From a virus, in IMG/VR virus record IMGVR_UViG_3300044837_000219, positions 1-64,000 of that record: a stretch of 64,000 nucleotides of DNA; one strand, 5' to 3'. This document shows, in pieces, positions 29,585 through 47,846 of this stretch. The notes under the pieces are model-generated. The model was not told the DNA's origin and did not search any database. It saw only the letters and a program-made list of their open reading frames with translations. Made by a program: the position numbers and the translations under genes. Position 1 is the stretch's first letter, and each line of letters opens with the position of its first letter.

Positions 29585-30035
29585 TCGCGACAGCCATCGC
29601 AGGCGCTTCCGGGGTCTACGGAGGAAGCGCAACCAGTATCGCAGGCCGTCGTCTCCCCGGCGAGGGGGCACGCCTCGCGGCTGGTGGCAGGGCGAGCGCC
29701 GACGGCTTCCAGATGGTCGTCGTGTGCTCCGTGGATGATTCGGACCGCTCGCGCTGCCGGAGCCAGCGTAGCGCGGAGGGGGCAGGGGGCGGACGGGGGC
29801 AGGCGTTTCCTCTTTACCCCTGTGTACGGATGCGTGGATTGGGGTTTGGACCTGCCCCCTGTGCCCCACTTCTGCCCCCAGGCTTGTTGATCTTCTTTAG
29901 GAGATCAACTCCGAAAAGGATCAGTCACAGGATCGCTGCTGAGGGCTTTTGATCACACCCCTGGGGTGAGCGGCTTCAGACGGGGGGTCAGGCTGGGAAA
30001 TCGGCGCCTGCGCCCGTTCTGGGCTGCTGAGACTG
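29585..30035. other. Intergenic region with G-run cluster and AT-richer dyad
   Basis: About 450 bases lie between converging transcription units. I see no convincing gene; the open frames lack ribosome sites. It holds G-runs around 29777-29803 (tracts of 6, 5 and 5 G) and opposite-strand copies of the same GGGGGCAG-type motif at 29851-29882. Next come an AT-richer part and a dyad GTTGATCT-N8-AGATCAAC at 29886-29909. Such a mix is compatible with a replication origin or a packaging or regulatory site; nothing proves it. Confidence 0.35.
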
Positions 30036-37524: not shown

Positions 37525-38625
37525 ATGGGATACCTGAACAACCACGGCATCACGTCGGTCAACCGGAAGTGGAGCCCTAAGTACCTCGGTCTCATCAACC
37601 ACGTCGTCTTCGTGGTCGATGCGTCCGCGTCCATGCGACCGCTCCGGGCCGCCGTTCTCAACCTGCTGCGCGAGCAGATCAAGTTGCTGGCGAAGCGCAG
37701 CGAGGAGACCGGCCAGGAGACGCGGGTCAGCGTCTACCTCTTCGATCAGGACGTCGAGTGCGTGGTCTACGACCGCGACGTCCTGCGCTCCATGAGCCTC
37801 GACGACGTCTACGAGGCGCACGGAATGACGGCGCTGATGGACGCGACGTCAATGGGCATCACCGAACTGCAGAAGACGGCGACGCTGCACGGCGACCACT
37901 CGTTCCTCTTCTTCGTCATCACCGACGGCGACGAGAACCAGTCGCGCTTCACCAACTCGTCCTTCCTGAACCGGCAGATCACATCGCTGCCGGAGAACTG
38001 GACGATGACCTGCTTCGTCCCCGACTTGAGCGGCACCGTGCAGGCCAACCGGTACGGATTCCCGCAGTCGAACATCGTGCGGTGGGACACCACGGTCGAG
38101 GGCATGGAGCGGCTCAGCGCCACGCTGACCCAAGCGACCGACACCTACTTCACCGGCCGCACCAGCGGCGTGCGCGGCTACAAGAGGGGTGGCCTGTTCG
38201 GCGGCGGCGAGGACATGCTGAACGACCAGACGGTGCAGGACGCCGGACTCGTCGAGATCGACCCGTCGCGCTACTCCGTCTTCACGCTGTCCGAGCGGAT
38301 CGAAGCGAAGCCGTTCTGCGAGCAGAAGGGGTTCGACTACAAGAACGGCGTCGTCTACTACGAGTGGTTCAACACGCAGGACATCCAGCCGCAGAAGACC
38401 GTGCTGTTCCAGCGCATCCGTGACGGCAAGGTGTTCACCGCCACGATGGGCTCGCAGGCGGCGCGTGACCTGCTCGGTCTCGACGCCCGTAACGTCTCGC
38501 GCGGCAAGCCTGCGCCGAACAAGGAGTACCGGCGCTTCATCCAGTCCACCGCGCCGAACCGGAAGTTGATCCCCGGCAAGCACGCGCTGGTGCTCGACGC
38601 GCTGCGGTCCGTCGTGAGCGTGTGA
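37525..38625 (+). CDS. von Willebrand factor A-domain protein
   Basis: The 366-residue product has a clear vWA fold with a complete MIDAS metal site: Asp32-Ala-Ser-Ala-Ser36, a Thr in Gly-Met-Thr-Ala-Leu near residue 94, and Asp in Ile-Thr-Asp-Gly-Asp-Glu near residue 132. The C-terminal 150 residues form an extra domain rich in Lys, Arg and Tyr. vWA proteins mediate metal-dependent protein-protein contacts, often beside AAA+ ATPases or in tellurium-resistance-like stress systems. No partner ATPase of the MoxR type is next to it, so its partner is unknown. Confidence 0.8.
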   Translation: MGYLNNHGITSVNRKWSPKYLGLINHVVFVVDASASMRPLRAAVLNLLREQIKLLAKRSEETGQETRVSVYLFDQDVECVVYDRDVLRSMSLDDVYEAHGMTALMDATSMGITELQKTATLHGDHSFLFFVITDGDENQSRFTNSSFLNRQITSLPENWTMTCFVPDLSGTVQANRYGFPQSNIVRWDTTVEGMERLSATLTQATDTYFTGRTSGVRGYKRGGLFGGGEDMLNDQTVQDAGLVEIDPSRYSVFTLSERIEAKPFCEQKGFDYKNGVVYYEWFNTQDIQPQKTVLFQRIRDGKVFTATMGSQAARDLLGLDARNVSRGKPAPNKEYRRFIQSTAPNRKLIPGKHALVLDALRSVVSV

Positions 38626-42613: not shown

Positions 42614-43168
42614 ATGAAGAAGATCCCGACCATTTTCGTGCGCGACCCGGAGAACCCGGACCGGATTCTGCTCGACCAGATCCATCCCGCGTGTCGCTGG
42701 GTGTTCGACGGCGAAGGTACTCCAACGCGCAAGTACGACGGCACCTGCGTCCTGCTTGACGTTCAAGGACGATGGTTCGCCCGTCGGCAGGTCAAGGTCG
42801 GCAAGAGCGCTCCCGAGGGCTACATCCCGGTCGATCGCGACGACGTCACCGGCAAGGTGTTCGGCTGGGAGCCGATGGAGAACTCCGGCTGGAAGTCGAT
42901 GCACGCTGAGGCTCTGTTCCGCCAGGAGGGCGAGTTCTGGCTTCCGGGGACGTACGAACTCTGCGGCCCGAAGATCAATGGCAATCCCGAGCGACTTCAC
43001 GGCCACATGCTCGTCGCGCACTCCGCAGCGCAGGTCATTCCGCTACCGGCGGAAATGTTTCGTCCGCTCGATATGGCGCTGTGGGTGAAGTCGCAGGGCT
43101 GGGAGGGTATCGTGTGGCATCACCCGGACGGTCGCATGGCGAAGTTGAAGGTCCGCGATCTGTTCTGA
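42614..43168 (+). CDS. RNA ligase (nucleotidyltransferase fold)
   Basis: The 184-residue product has the motifs of covalent nucleotidyltransferases. Lys40 in Arg-Lys-Tyr-Asp-Gly-Thr is the AMP-binding lysine (motif I). Tyr-Glu-Leu-Cys-Gly-Pro-Lys-Ile at 114-121 is motif III/IIIa. Glu164-Gly-Ile-Val-Trp-His-His is motif IV and Ala-Lys177-Leu-Lys179 is motif V. It is small and lacks a separate C-terminal domain. Such phage ligases repair cut tRNA or other RNA during host defence, or join DNA nicks if divergent. The tRNA-like RNA at 51.3 kb is a speculative substrate. Confidence 0.8.
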   Translation: MKKIPTIFVRDPENPDRILLDQIHPACRWVFDGEGTPTRKYDGTCVLLDVQGRWFARRQVKVGKSAPEGYIPVDRDDVTGKVFGWEPMENSGWKSMHAEALFRQEGEFWLPGTYELCGPKINGNPERLHGHMLVAHSAAQVIPLPAEMFRPLDMALWVKSQGWEGIVWHHPDGRMAKLKVRDLF

Positions 43169-43473
43169 CCCACGAGTTGCCCGGCGGGCGTGCTGGACGC
43201 CATTCAACGCCGGGCGGCCGAGCCGGAGCGGTCTGTAGCAGAGCCCGCCAGCAAGGGTGATGTACTCCGGCGCCACAGACTCGCTGGCCGGACAGCCAGA
43301 GCAGAACGTGCGCGACCTCCCTGGGCTGGTTGGGGGAGGTAAGTGATGAGTCGCGCGCGTCCCAGCGAGCACCGCCCACCGATCGCGTGGCCTGCGATCG
43401 GTGGGCGTTGTGGTGTTCGGGTTCGAAATCTGTCACTCTAGAACCCTTCTCAGGCAGGAAGAGGGTTCTCGTA
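43169..43473. other. 305-base intergenic region with nested inverted repeats
   Basis: It holds GCCCGGCG...CGCCGGGC with an inner GGCGT-GCTGG-ACGCC stem (about 43177-43208). GCCGGAG/CTCCGGC and GTCTGT/ACAGAC pairs then cross each other (43214-43280), as a pseudoknot could. A 32-codon frame at 43346-43441 has a fine ribosome site (GGGGGAGG) but runs through the hairpin at 43373-43407, so it is doubtful. A structured RNA or a leader of the next operon is possible. Confidence 0.35.
43373..43407 (+). terminator. Hairpin terminator before the FtsK block
   Basis: A 14-bp perfect inverted repeat (CGCCCACCGATCGC and its complement, 7-base loop) is followed by TTGTGGTGTT. It separates the RNA ligase operon from the membrane/FtsK operon. 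Confidence 0.7.
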
Positions 43474-43710
43474 ATGGATCACGTTGACCGGCTGATGCGC
43501 GGCATGAGGTTCGCGTTCGGCATCTGGGCACCGCGCACCGCGTACGCCGTCGGCGTGCTGTGGTGGGCCACGGACTACTCGCCGTCGGTCGTAGTGCTGG
43601 GCTTCACCGTCGTGCCCGCTGTGCGACTGCTGCTCGACCAGCCACTCCTCGTTGCCGCTGAGACGGCGCAGGCTCACCGCTCCGGCCCGATCGGAGCCCG
43701 CCGTGACTGA
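43474..43710 (+). CDS. Small two-span membrane protein
   Basis: The 78-residue product (ATG 43474) has two hydrophobic stretches (about residues 17-34 and 38-56). The leader carries a dyad, AGAACCCTT...AAGAGGGTTCT, that covers its AGGAAGAGGG ribosome region. It overlaps the FtsK-like gene, so the two are coupled. Small membrane proteins also accompany tra genes of actinomycete plasmids; that parallel is suggestive only. Confidence 0.55.
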   Translation: MDHVDRLMRGMRFAFGIWAPRTAYAVGVLWWATDYSPSVVVLGFTVVPAVRLLLDQPLLVAAETAQAHRSGPIGARRD

Positions 43711-45742
43711 TTCCACCGACCCGTCCGACGAGGACGTCAGGCGACTGCTGGACGGCGCTTCAGCGCTTCTGGGCGGGCTCGACGAGGATGGAGACGGCGA
43801 GCCTGACGGTCTCGTCGAACCTGACGCCACAGCGGGGCAGGAAGCGCCGCTCCTGTTCGAGCGCTCGTCCATCGTCGGCGGGCCGAAGCGGAAGCGGCTG
43901 GACCGCCCCCAGCACCGCGTTGCGCGCGCCGGAGCCAAGGCCGTGTCGCCACAGACGATGGCGCGGCTGATGCGCGCCGAGGGGCGCGGCATGCTGCGTT
44001 TCTTCGACTGGTTGCACAACTACTACAACGCCAACGACAAGTTGGACTTGCGGCTGCGGAACCCGCGCGCGCACCACGAAATCCACGAGCAGCGCCGGAA
44101 CCGTACCTTCATCTCTGCCGGGACGCTGCTGCTGCTCGCGCTCCTCCTGTTCGCCAGTGCGGGCCTCGTGGGGCTGGCGGGGGCCGCCTTCGTCATCTTC
44201 GCTGCGTTCGCGCGCGCGGGGCGGGGCAAGGACCGCCTGCTGGACGCGGAGGCGGGCGACGACATCGGGATGGGAGAGACGCGCATCCAGCGCGCGGTCG
44301 CGCGCGCGGTGTTCGGTGTCGACCTGTCGAACGAGAAGTACCGGGACTGGTGGCGGAACATCATCGTCCGCGAGGGCTGGACGCAGGTCGTCGGATCCGA
44401 CACCCGCACCATCCGGCTGGGCCTCCCGGCACCGCACAGCGCCGCCAAGGCGAAGGCCAAGGAGCGTGACATCGCCGCCGCGCTCGACTTGACAGAGCAG
44501 CAGGTGCGCATCATCGCCGACCCGCGACGGGAGAACGCGGGCGACTTCGATCTGATCGTCTACAACAGCAACCCGTGGGACATCCCCGCGACGTTCTCCC
44601 CGATCGCGCTGGAACCGCGCCGGACCTGCATCTGGGATGGCATCGACTTCGGCATCGACATCGACCGTCAGCCGGTGCGACTGGACATCGTCGGCAAGAG
44701 CATGCTCATCGGCGGGCTGCCGGAGATGGGCAAGACCACGACGGCGCTCACCATCATGACGTCCGTGGTGCTCGATCCGTTCGTGCGCATCTGGGTGGCC
44801 GACGCCAAGGGCGTCGACACTGCACCGCTCATCCCGCTGGCGTACCGCTACATCGGTGCGTCGCAGGAAGAGATGGTGAAGATGCTGCAGGAGTTGATGG
44901 CTTGGGGTCGCCAGAAGTTGATGGCACTCAAGGAAGTCCGGCGCGTCAAGTTCGACCGCAGTCTGTGCGCGATGTACCAGCAGATTGATGCGAATCACCC
45001 GCTGGCGACGGTCGACGTCGTTTACATCGACGAGGCGCGGTTCTACACGAACGGCGCCGTCGACCTACAGTCGCGGCGCATCGTGTCGCTGCTGTCGCAG
45101 ATCATCGAGATGTTCCGCGCCGTCGGCATCATCGTCATCGTCGCCACGCAGCGCCCGTCAGTGAAGAACATTCCGTCGGAAATCCGGGACCTGCTGCGTA
45201 TCCGGCTCGCGCACGCATGCACAACGCCTGCGATGAGCAACACCATCCTCGGCGAAGGCGCAGCAGGGCAGGGCTTCAGCGCCACGCAGTTCGACGAGGA
45301 CCAGCCCGGCGTTTCGTGGCTGCGCGTCCTGAAGTCGTTCCGCCAGGTGCGACCGCATCTGACCCAGGACGAGCAGTTGGAAAAGGCGTGCGAGGAAGCC
45401 TGGCGGCAGCGCTCCGAGGTCGGAACAACGCCGGAGGCGATCGACGCCACCATGACGTCGGTGCCGACGCTGCTGCTGGACATCAAGGCCATCTGCGACG
45501 AGCGCGAGTGGAAGCGCGTCCCGACGAACGTCCTGCTGCCGCTGCTCGCGGCGCGCTCGCAGGAGTACGACGGAATGAGCGCCACCGAGTTGTCGTCGCG
45601 GATGGGCAACTCCGGCGTGACGCCTCGACCGATCGGTCCGTGGGACTTCGAGGAAGGCGAGCCCGGCAAGAACGTACGTGGTTACCGGCTGGAATGGATC
45701 GAGGCTGCGATCGAGCGGCACAAGAAGGAGACGGTGCAGTGA
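43703..45742 (+). CDS. Membrane-anchored FtsK/SpoIIIE/Tra-like DNA translocase
   Basis: The 679-residue ATPase starts at GTG six bases from CGGAG. An acidic start (1-60) is followed by two adjacent membrane segments (about 137-170). The motor domain has Walker A Gly-Gly-Leu-Pro-Glu-Met-Gly-Lys-Thr-Thr near 337-346, Walker B Val-Val-Tyr-Ile-Asp-Glu-Ala near 438-444 and Ala-Thr-Gln-Arg-Pro near 475. A winged-helix-like C-terminal part follows. This is the build of FtsK-like translocases such as Tra of Streptomyces plasmids, which move double-stranded DNA across membranes. A role in phage DNA partition or transfer is inference. Confidence 0.8.
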   Translation: MTDSTDPSDEDVRRLLDGASALLGGLDEDGDGEPDGLVEPDATAGQEAPLLFERSSIVGGPKRKRLDRPQHRVARAGAKAVSPQTMARLMRAEGRGMLRFFDWLHNYYNANDKLDLRLRNPRAHHEIHEQRRNRTFISAGTLLLLALLLFASAGLVGLAGAAFVIFAAFARAGRGKDRLLDAEAGDDIGMGETRIQRAVARAVFGVDLSNEKYRDWWRNIIVREGWTQVVGSDTRTIRLGLPAPHSAAKAKAKERDIAAALDLTEQQVRIIADPRRENAGDFDLIVYNSNPWDIPATFSPIALEPRRTCIWDGIDFGIDIDRQPVRLDIVGKSMLIGGLPEMGKTTTALTIMTSVVLDPFVRIWVADAKGVDTAPLIPLAYRYIGASQEEMVKMLQELMAWGRQKLMALKEVRRVKFDRSLCAMYQQIDANHPLATVDVVYIDEARFYTNGAVDLQSRRIVSLLSQIIEMFRAVGIIVIVATQRPSVKNIPSEIRDLLRIRLAHACTTPAMSNTILGEGAAGQGFSATQFDEDQPGVSWLRVLKSFRQVRPHLTQDEQLEKACEEAWRQRSEVGTTPEAIDATMTSVPTLLLDIKAICDEREWKRVPTNVLLPLLAARSQEYDGMSATELSSRMGNSGVTPRPIGPWDFEEGEPGKNVRGYRLEWIEAAIERHKKETVQ

Positions 45743-46056
45743 AGAAGACGCTCGATTTCTCCGACCGGCGCGACTGGGGACACGACATCACCTTCAGGGT
45801 TGATGCGAACATCAACCCTTTCGTGGTCAAGGGAAGTCTGTGGCATACGCCCAGTCCCGGAATCGGTGATTGGCTCGTTCTGCGGCACGGCAGTGGCCGT
45901 CCGGTGCTCTACCAGTTCACGTCGGTGAAGAGGGTCACAGATCCGCAGGACATGACGCATTTCGAGGCTGAGTTCGTCCGACTCAGTCAGCGGCCCGATG
46001 TCGTTCCGGAGTGCTGCTGTGGATGCATCGAAGAGGCGGGAGTGCGTCATGGCTGA
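45739..46056 (+). CDS. Unknown protein of the FtsK operon
   Basis: The 105-residue product starts at GTG overlapping the FtsK-like stop. It has a beta-rich middle with Trp and a C-terminal Cys-Cys-Cys-Gly-Cys cluster that may bind metal. No family recognised. Confidence 0.6.
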   Translation: MKKTLDFSDRRDWGHDITFRVDANINPFVVKGSLWHTPSPGIGDWLVLRHGSGRPVLYQFTSVKRVTDPQDMTHFEAEFVRLSQRPDVVPECCCGCIEEAGVRHG

Positions 46057-46558
46057 GGCAGTAGCGCCGATCATCGACATCGCGACCGGTCAGCGCATCG
46101 CAGCGCCCGCCGTGGCGAAGCCGCGTCGGATCTGCGAGGACGAGCGCGGCCGGTACATCATGGTGGACGGCCAGCGCATCCCGGTGCGCAACGGCTGGCG
46201 GCCGGGCGACCAGGACCCGTTGGAGGACTGGCAGACGGCGCGCGAGATCGCACAGGACATCGCGAACGGCGACGGCCTGCACATCGAGCCAGGTAAGTGG
46301 CTCGGCTCGCTCCTGACGGTGTCAACGTCCGTCGGCGGCTGGACGACGTACCGGTGCGCTCCGGAGCCGATGGTGGCCGCGTGGCTCGCTAGCCTCGGCG
46401 TGGTATGGACACCCTGGTCGCTGTGGCTCACCTGGCACGCTGCGCCGCTGGGTGGCTTCCCAGCGCTCGCTGCGGCCATCTCCTTCGTCGGTGCACCGTT
46501 CCTGCTGTGGACGCGGTTCTGCATCAACCACACCGAACTCGGAAGGCCGCGTACGTGA
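46049..46558 (+). CDS. Membrane protein of the FtsK operon
   Basis: The 169-residue product has a soluble, charged N-terminal half and two or three hydrophobic stretches in the C-terminal half (about 93-158). It overlaps both neighbours, so it belongs to the same operon. No family recognised. Confidence 0.6.
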   Translation: MAEAVAPIIDIATGQRIAAPAVAKPRRICEDERGRYIMVDGQRIPVRNGWRPGDQDPLEDWQTAREIAQDIANGDGLHIEPGKWLGSLLTVSTSVGGWTTYRCAPEPMVAAWLASLGVVWTPWSLWLTWHAAPLGGFPALAAAISFVGAPFLLWTRFCINHTELGRPRT

Positions 46559-47034
46559 GGGGATCAACTCACAGGGAATGGGGCGCTGTAACAGGCGCCC
46601 TTATCTCTGCCGCTGCAGGGAACGACCCGCTCAACGTCGCCGTGTGCTTCGGCATGGGCTACGCGTGCGCGTCGTTCCCTGACCGGATCGAAGCACCGCT
46701 ACGTCTGCAGCACCGGGGCATCTCGCACGCCTGGGAGGTCTACGCAGCGCTGGCAGCGCTCGCCTGGTGGCTTCCGCCGGTCGTCGACTACCCGGTGTGG
46801 GGTTTCGCGCTGGCGTGCCTCTCCCACCTGACCGGCGACCTGATGTTCGGCAAGTCCGGCTACGGACGCGGTGCAGGCATACCGTGGTTGCTCGGCACCT
46901 GCCACTGGGGGCCGAATCTCTTCAAGGTGAACAACTGGACCGAGAAGCACTTCCGATGGCTGCTCATCAAGGTGAGGCCGTACAGCCTCGCCGGTGCGTT
47001 CCTGTGGGCGTTAATCCACATGGTGGTGGCGTAA
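46555..47034 (+). CDS. YdjM-like inner-membrane metal-dependent hydrolase family
   Basis: The 159-residue product (GTG overlapping the previous stop) has the spaced His/Asp signature of the YdjM/LexA-regulated membrane hydrolase family: Thr-His-Arg-Glu near residue 5, Arg-Gly-Ile-Ser-His near residue 50 and His-Leu-Thr-Gly-Asp near residue 90. Three or four membrane segments lie between. Substrate unknown; possibly a lipid. In this place it may remodel the membrane for the translocase. Confidence 0.7.
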   Translation: MRGSTHREWGAVTGALISAAAGNDPLNVAVCFGMGYACASFPDRIEAPLRLQHRGISHAWEVYAALAALAWWLPPVVDYPVWGFALACLSHLTGDLMFGKSGYGRGAGIPWLLGTCHWGPNLFKVNNWTEKHFRWLLIKVRPYSLAGAFLWALIHMVVA

Positions 47035-47616: not shown

Positions 47617-47622
47617 ATGCAG

Positions 47623-47667
47623 AAGGCCCGGACCCAGGATGCTGCTGGCATCCTGGGTCCGGGCCTT
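47623..47667. terminator. Strong bidirectional terminator
   Basis: A 19-bp perfect inverted repeat (AAGGCCCGGACCCAGGATG and its complement) with a 7-base loop lies between converging operons. A-rich and T-rich ends (AGAAGG / CCTTCGT) allow stops in both directions. The 179 bases from here to the leftward lipoprotein gene show no gene. Confidence 0.9.
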
Positions 47668-47846
47668 CGTGTTGCGCGTCCAACCACACCGTGAGAGTTG
47701 AACGCTGCGCAGGTGCGGCTCGCTCGCCGTGCTGGGCGTTGCGTGATGTCGCGGCTACAGCCACTTCACCGGGCGAGGTCGTGGCCGCCCTTCCCCTCGA
47801 CGCGCCCTGCGTCGGAGATTGAGGCGGGGTTGACGCCCTCAGGTGA

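What the first reader, a model, noticed from the sequence alone, without database searches (positions are those of the whole stretch)
43474..47034. Tra/FtsK-like translocase cassette with small membrane proteins and a YdjM-like protein
The ATPase has two membrane spans, Walker A and B and an FtsK-type core. It is in one overlapping operon with a small two-span protein and two more membrane proteins. Actinomycete plasmids move double-stranded DNA with a single Tra protein helped by small membrane spread proteins. A phage bearing such a set could have a plasmid-like stage or transfer DNA between mycelial or attached cells.
Basis: inference. Interest (0 to 1): 0.7.

Follow-up and report, generated by a model that had tools for sequence, protein, structure and literature searches.

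The report
Plasmid-type DNA pump in a phage
An uncultured virus of actinobacteria carries a membrane-anchored DNA pump of the kind that Streptomyces plasmids use to move themselves between cells, and at least 25 other virus contigs in the same collection carry a related pump, usually with helper membrane genes beside it, so some phages may spread by conjugation as well as by particles.

Summary
Strong hairpins flank the unit. The record (69,004 bp) is an uncultured actinobacterial siphophage. The ATPase belongs by profile to the TraB-type plasmid-transfer clade (258.7 bits, against 28.7 for FtsK). Its best matches are Streptomyces conjugative plasmids (pSVH1, pSG5, pFP11; E down to 1e-31). Cultured phages give nothing better than E 0.01. 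The tree alone does not settle its exact place. The finding is wider than the window: 28 IMG/VR contigs encode a TraB-clade ATPase, 25 of them with phage terminase or tape-measure genes. Most have a fixed module: two-span protein, SpdB-like protein, TraB, non-coding gap, two-span protein. In 12 of 26 such gaps one 8-mer recurs three or more times, as in the plasmid transfer site clt. The window's cassette is a divergent, reduced version: no SpdB2/DUF2637, no clt-like repeats beside it, no integrase. A conjugative Streptomyces plasmid-phage (pZL12) is already known, with a distant Tra. New variant of a known kind; transfer itself is untested.

The parts
43370..43410 (+). hairpin before the cassette (putative terminator or insulator)
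   Evidence: 17-nt arms, 94% complementary; folds at -34.3 kcal/mol, z -4.9
43474..43710 (+). 78-aa small hydrophobic membrane protein
   Evidence: ORF; hydropathy; no family match; no match to the small proteins of other phage modules
43703..45742 (+). TraB-clade dsDNA translocase ATPase, 679 aa
   Evidence: FtsK_SpoIIIE 21.2 bits and PHROG 1358 E 2e-29; plasmid TraB hits to E 9e-32; profile test; NCBIfam plasmid_TraB E 2.6e-11; model and fold search
44111..44221 (+). hydrophobic region that encodes the membrane helix hairpin of the ATPase
   Evidence: hydropathy, AF2 helices 121-153 and 155-175, position
44711..44740 (+). Walker A GGLPEMGKTT
   Evidence: sequence position, alignment
45023..45037 (+). 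Walker B YIDEA
   Evidence: sequence position, alignment
45461..45739 (+). C-terminal winged-helix domain of the ATPase, at the place of the DNA-recognition domain of TraB
   Evidence: AF2 elements 587-678, alignable with L008 and L011
45739..46056 (+). 105-aa soluble protein of unknown function
   Evidence: PHROG 8812 E 3.7e-7; overlaps the ATPase stop by 4 nt
46049..46558 (+). 169-aa protein with a C-terminal two-span hairpin
   Evidence: ORF, hydropathy; no homologue found
46555..47034 (+). YdjM-like membrane protein (HRGISH and LSHLTGD motifs), GTG start
   Evidence: PF04307 E 3e-6, 27.2 of 29 bits; ORF
47622..47668 (+). strong hairpin that ends the unit
   Evidence: 21-nt perfect arms; -52.1 kcal/mol, z -9.3

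Best explanation
The cassette encodes a TraB-type double-stranded DNA pump on the genome of an actinobacterial siphophage. By analogy with TraB, the ATPase would sit in the membrane by its helix hairpin, assemble as a ring, recognise phage DNA with its C-terminal winged helix and drive unprocessed phage DNA across a cell boundary (hyphal contact or septum). The small membrane proteins next to it would act as spread or pore-assisting factors. Shown here: membership of the TraB clade by profile, intact ATPase motifs, membrane hairpin, winged helix, the co-transcribable unit, the phage setting, and recurrence of TraB-clade modules in other phage contigs. Inferred: ring assembly, DNA recognition, the direction and purpose of transport, and the role of the small proteins.
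For: TraB-clade HMM built without the window protein gives 258.7 bits, FtsK HMM 28.7. Plasmid hits E 9e-32 to 1e-27 to pFP11, pSTS2, pSG5 and pSVH1 TraB, phage hits no better than 0.01. NCBIfam plasmid_TraB is the best NCBIfam model. Fold FtsK/TcpA with winged helix. 28 IMG/VR contigs with a TraB-clade ATPase, 25 with terminase or tape measure. Membrane-protein genes are enriched beside them (72 of 130 neighbours against 41 of 385 elsewhere, Fisher 8e-24; loci are related, so this overstates the case). 8-mer clusters just after TraB in 12 of 26 contigs against 6 of 76 other gaps (p 5e-5), with pSVH1 GACCCGGA x4 as positive control. Biology of TraB, clt and Spd: PMC3583192, PMC4170104, PMC3218068.
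Against: The window cassette lacks an SpdB2/DUF2637 gene and 8-mer repeats in or beside it. Its membrane proteins are orphans. It is a long branch; the tree does not fix its place, and an FtsK grouping is not rejected (p 0.13). No integrase or ParA. The host is unknown and may not be mycelial. Only one copy of this exact cassette is known, so selection cannot be measured.
Confidence: 0.5

Rival explanations
1. The pump works inside one cell or hypha: it moves or partitions phage DNA through septa, or clears DNA from closing septa, as FtsK/SpoIIIE does, without cell-to-cell transfer.
For: The fold is that of FtsK motors; no partition ATPase was found in the record; spread and stability functions overlap in Streptomyces plasmids (PMC4170104).
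Against: The sequence is TraB-clade, not FtsK. Phage-borne modules keep Spd-like membrane genes and clt-like repeats in the plasmid layout.
Confidence: 0.25
2. Host-takeover or exclusion cargo: the membrane ATPase with its membrane partners blocks or ejects incoming DNA, or changes the envelope during infection; the resemblance to Tra is ancestry only.
For: It is a discrete hairpin-bounded unit next to an RNA ligase gene; weak hit to the FtsK-like Mad8 of a defence system (E 1e-11); the partner genes are orphans; PHROG 1358 is filed under moron/host takeover.
Against: The Mad8 hit is confined to the motor domain, and none of the other cassette proteins matches a defence family. The recurrent phage modules look like transfer loci.
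Confidence: 0.15
3. Decayed remnant of a plasmid tra module captured by the phage, no longer functional.
For: Long branch, lost SpdB2 and clt repeats.
Against: Open frame, intact Walker A and B and winged helix, overlapping gene starts, flanking hairpins.
Confidence: 0.1

Closest known systems
TraB of Streptomyces plasmid pSVH1 and relatives (pSG5, pFP11, pSTS2)
   Same: About 30% identity in the motor; same order of membrane segment, motor and winged helix; small membrane genes alongside; same profile clade.
   Different: The window copy sits in a phage, lacks SpdB2/DUF2637 and the clt repeats downstream, and has a 105-aa gene, a 169-aa gene and a YdjM-like gene instead.
Streptomyces plasmid-phage pZL12
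   Different: Its FtsK-like gene gp071 is the best match but scores only 19.7 bits with the TraB-clade profile that gives the window 258.7; it has ParAB and an integrase, the window record has neither.
FtsK-like translocases of cultured phages (cluster J mycobacteriophages, Bacillus phages)
   Same: FtsK-fold motor on a phage.
   Different: FtsK branch in the tree, shorter (LittleE 442 aa), best match to the window E 0.01-1.
AICE Tra proteins (pSAM2 type)
   Same: Single FtsK/SpoIIIE-type transfer protein in actinobacteria (PMC3218068).
   Different: The one TraSA-like sequence included falls outside the clade of the window protein.

Membership tests
TraB/Tra of actinobacterial conjugative plasmids | FtsK/SpoIIIE-type motor, closer to Tra than to cellular or phage FtsK | tested here: met
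   258.7 against 28.7 bits; plasmid hits E 1e-31, phage hits no better than 0.01. The AU test on the tree is not decisive (p 0.13).
TraB/Tra of actinobacterial conjugative plasmids | N-terminal membrane segment | tested here: met
   Hydropathy and AF2 helix hairpin 121-175.
TraB/Tra of actinobacterial conjugative plasmids | C-terminal winged helix for the recognition repeats | tested here: met
   AF2 elements 587-678 and alignment with phage TraB proteins. Fold only; DNA binding not tested.
TraB/Tra of actinobacterial conjugative plasmids | clt locus with repeated 8-bp motifs near tra | tested here: not met
   No 8-mer with three or more copies within 300 bp around the cassette; pSVH1 control positive, but pSG5 and pSTS2 also negative by this test.
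TraB/Tra of actinobacterial conjugative plasmids | Hexameric DNA pump, pore formation, conjugal transfer | not testable with these tools
   Needs bench work.
Spd spread proteins | SpdB2/DUF2637 membrane protein beside tra | tested here: not met
   No PF10935 match in the record. Spd genes are reported to be very diverse (PMC4170104), so this does not exclude Spd-like function.
Phage-borne spd-tra module | two-span protein, SpdB-like protein, TraB, gap, about 155-aa two-span protein | tested here: not met
   The window has a small hydrophobic protein before and a two-span protein after the ATPase, but no SpdB-like gene, no gap and no sequence match to the module proteins.
YdjM (PF04307) | Profile match above the curated cut-off | tested here: inconclusive
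   27.2 of 29 bits, E 3e-6.
Phage-plasmid | Extrachromosomal replication and partition genes | tested here: inconclusive
   No ParA-type AAA_31, tyrosine integrase or resolvase/serine recombinase found; the record may be incomplete.

The most novel reading that the evidence does not exclude
A broad set of actinobacterial phages carries complete conjugation modules (Spd-like proteins, TraB, clt-like repeats) and spreads in two ways, as particles and as naked double-stranded DNA pumped between cells; the window phage is a divergent, reduced member of this set.
Probability: 0.4. Interest if true: 0.85.

Novelty: new variant of a known kind. Interest (0 to 1): 0.62.

Why it matters
If these modules work, many actinobacterial phages could spread through a colony without lysis and without a receptor, and could mobilise host DNA, since TraB of pSVH1 binds clt-like sites on Streptomyces chromosomes (PMC3218068). 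It would blur the line between phage and conjugative plasmid in the bacteria that make most antibiotics, and it gives a concrete, testable list of contigs and candidate cis sites.

Tried and rejected
Packaging or chromosome-partition FtsK: not favoured by the profile test, although the AU test alone did not exclude it. clt at the window cassette: no repeats. pSVH1-type GACCCGGA sites: 8 on the + strand and 1 on the - strand, but scattered and not unusual (9.6% of composition-matched 8-mers do as well). Shared origin with the phage module's small membrane proteins: no profile match. Synteny through the neighbouring RNA ligase: 31 contigs have the ligase, none shares other window genes within the flanks held. 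Nearest cultured relatives: terminase about 53% to Arthrobacter and Streptomyces phages, but Kromp shares no other gene in the 50 kb compared. Defence system: only a motor-domain hit to Mad8. Structured RNA families: none. YdjM-like and 169-aa relatives in IMG/VR: none.

Full report
What is there. The window is bases 1-64000 of a 69,004-base virus record. It is an uncultured tailed phage with a siphophage-type tail: terminase large subunit, portal, major head protein, 1291-aa tape measure, endolysin, primase and exonuclease. The terminase is about 53% identical to Arthrobacter and Streptomyces phages. No tyrosine integrase, resolvase/serine recombinase or ParA-type AAA_31 protein was found; the record may be incomplete. 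At 43474-47034 five genes overlap by 4 or 8 nt. The unit lies between two strong hairpins.

What the ATPase is. Pfam sees a weak FtsK_SpoIIIE match (21.2 of 24 bits), and PHROGs an FtsK/SpoIIIE family at E 2e-29. Against 50,697 phage records nothing is better than E 0.01. Against plasmids the best hits are Streptomyces conjugative plasmids at E 9e-32 to 1e-27, among them the TraB gene of pSVH1, whose transfer biochemistry is known (PMC3583192, PMC4170104). A TraB-clade profile built without the window protein scores it 258.7 bits, an FtsK profile 28.7 bits. NCBIfam's plasmid_TraB is its best NCBIfam model (E 2.6e-11, far under the equivalog cut-off). Maximum-likelihood trees place it inside the TraB-like clade (support 95/95, 95/77), away from cellular FtsK and the mycobacteriophage FtsK proteins, but on a long branch. 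AU tests do not settle its place: FtsK plus window p 0.13, pSVH1 group plus window p 0.05, the L008/L011 group plus window p 0.40. The AlphaFold2 model shows a membrane helix hairpin, a RecA-type motor and a C-terminal winged helix. Its closest solved structures are FtsK motors and the conjugation protein TcpA.

Wider pattern. Scans of IMG/VR found 28 contigs with a TraB-clade ATPase. Terminase (phrog_9) or tape measure (phrog_58) is present in 25 of the 28, and further phage genes were checked one by one. In most of them the order is a 60-104-aa protein with two or three spans, an SpdB-like protein of 376-451 aa, TraB of about 700 aa, a non-coding gap of mostly 140-280 bp, and often a protein of about 155 aa with two spans. 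DUF2637, the Pfam family in the SpdB-type gene of several plasmids, is clear in L008 and L011 and weak in five more. Membrane-protein genes are enriched next to these ATPases (72 of 130 against 41 of 385; the loci are related, so the p value of 8e-24 overstates the case). In the gap after TraB, 12 of 26 contigs have an 8-mer with three or more copies, against 6 of 76 other gaps of like length in the same loci (p 5e-5). The same test recovers GACCCGGA x4 just after pSVH1 traB. These phages therefore look as if they carry whole spd-tra-clt modules. Several contigs come from isolate genomes and may be prophages; at least a dozen come from metagenomes.

How the window differs. There is no gap after its ATPase, no repeated 8-mer around the cassette, no DUF2637 protein, and its small membrane proteins match neither the modules nor any library. 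The only clustered 8-mers in any gap of the record are CTGCCCCC/GGGGGCAG at 64866-65091, with a smaller set at 29664-29879. Their inverted layout looks more like a replication or regulatory site than a clt, and I do not claim them as one.

Mechanism. The best-supported reading is a TraB-type pump that moves phage double-stranded DNA across cell boundaries, helped by small membrane proteins. Shown: ancestry by profile, intact motifs, membrane hairpin, winged helix, operon, phage setting, recurrence of the clade in phages. Inferred: ring assembly, DNA recognition, intercellular transport. Rivals are septal or partition work inside one hypha, exclusion or takeover cargo, and a decayed remnant.

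Known background. The Streptomyces plasmid-phage pZL12 is reported to transfer as a plasmid (Zhong et al. 2010, as cited in PMC3583192 and PMC7157519; the paper itself was not held). Its FtsK-like gene gp071 is only distantly related (19.7 bits). Reviews of phage-plasmids discuss relaxase and oriT mobilisation; the passages found in them do not mention TraB-type modules, and my searches found no paper on spd-tra modules in phages. This is therefore a new variant of a known kind, not a new category.

Noticed in passing
window 29664-29879 and record 64866-65091 (L007:4866-5091): Two non-coding loci share clustered GGGGGCAG/CTGCCCCC 8-mers in inverted layout (12 of the record's 17 copies), with 43-nt arms at the second locus; origin- or operator-like.
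   Followed up: partly
loci L158, L160, L162, L163, L164, L167, L014, L008: Phage-borne TraB genes are followed by clt-like clusters of one 8-mer (such as CCCCGTCC, CCTGGACA, TCTCGACC), several with spacings of about 10-11 or 21 bp.
   Followed up: partly
window 42614-43168: RNA ligase gene (PHROG 14301, RLIG1-like) directly before the cassette; 31 IMG/VR contigs carry a relative, without other window genes nearby.
   Followed up: partly
window 37525-38625: VWA-domain protein (PF00092) in the early region of the phage.
   Followed up: no
window 58874-59980: Calcineurin-like phosphoesterase (PF00149) with a hydrophobic N-terminus.
   Followed up: no
record 68951-69001 (L007 end): A run of GTGC repeats at the very end of the record; possible assembly end.
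   Followed up: no
loci L034-L074: Chromosomal TraB-like ATPases of about 290-530 aa (open frames) in Micromonospora, Kribbella, Solirubrobacter and others form their own clade; function not examined.
   Followed up: no
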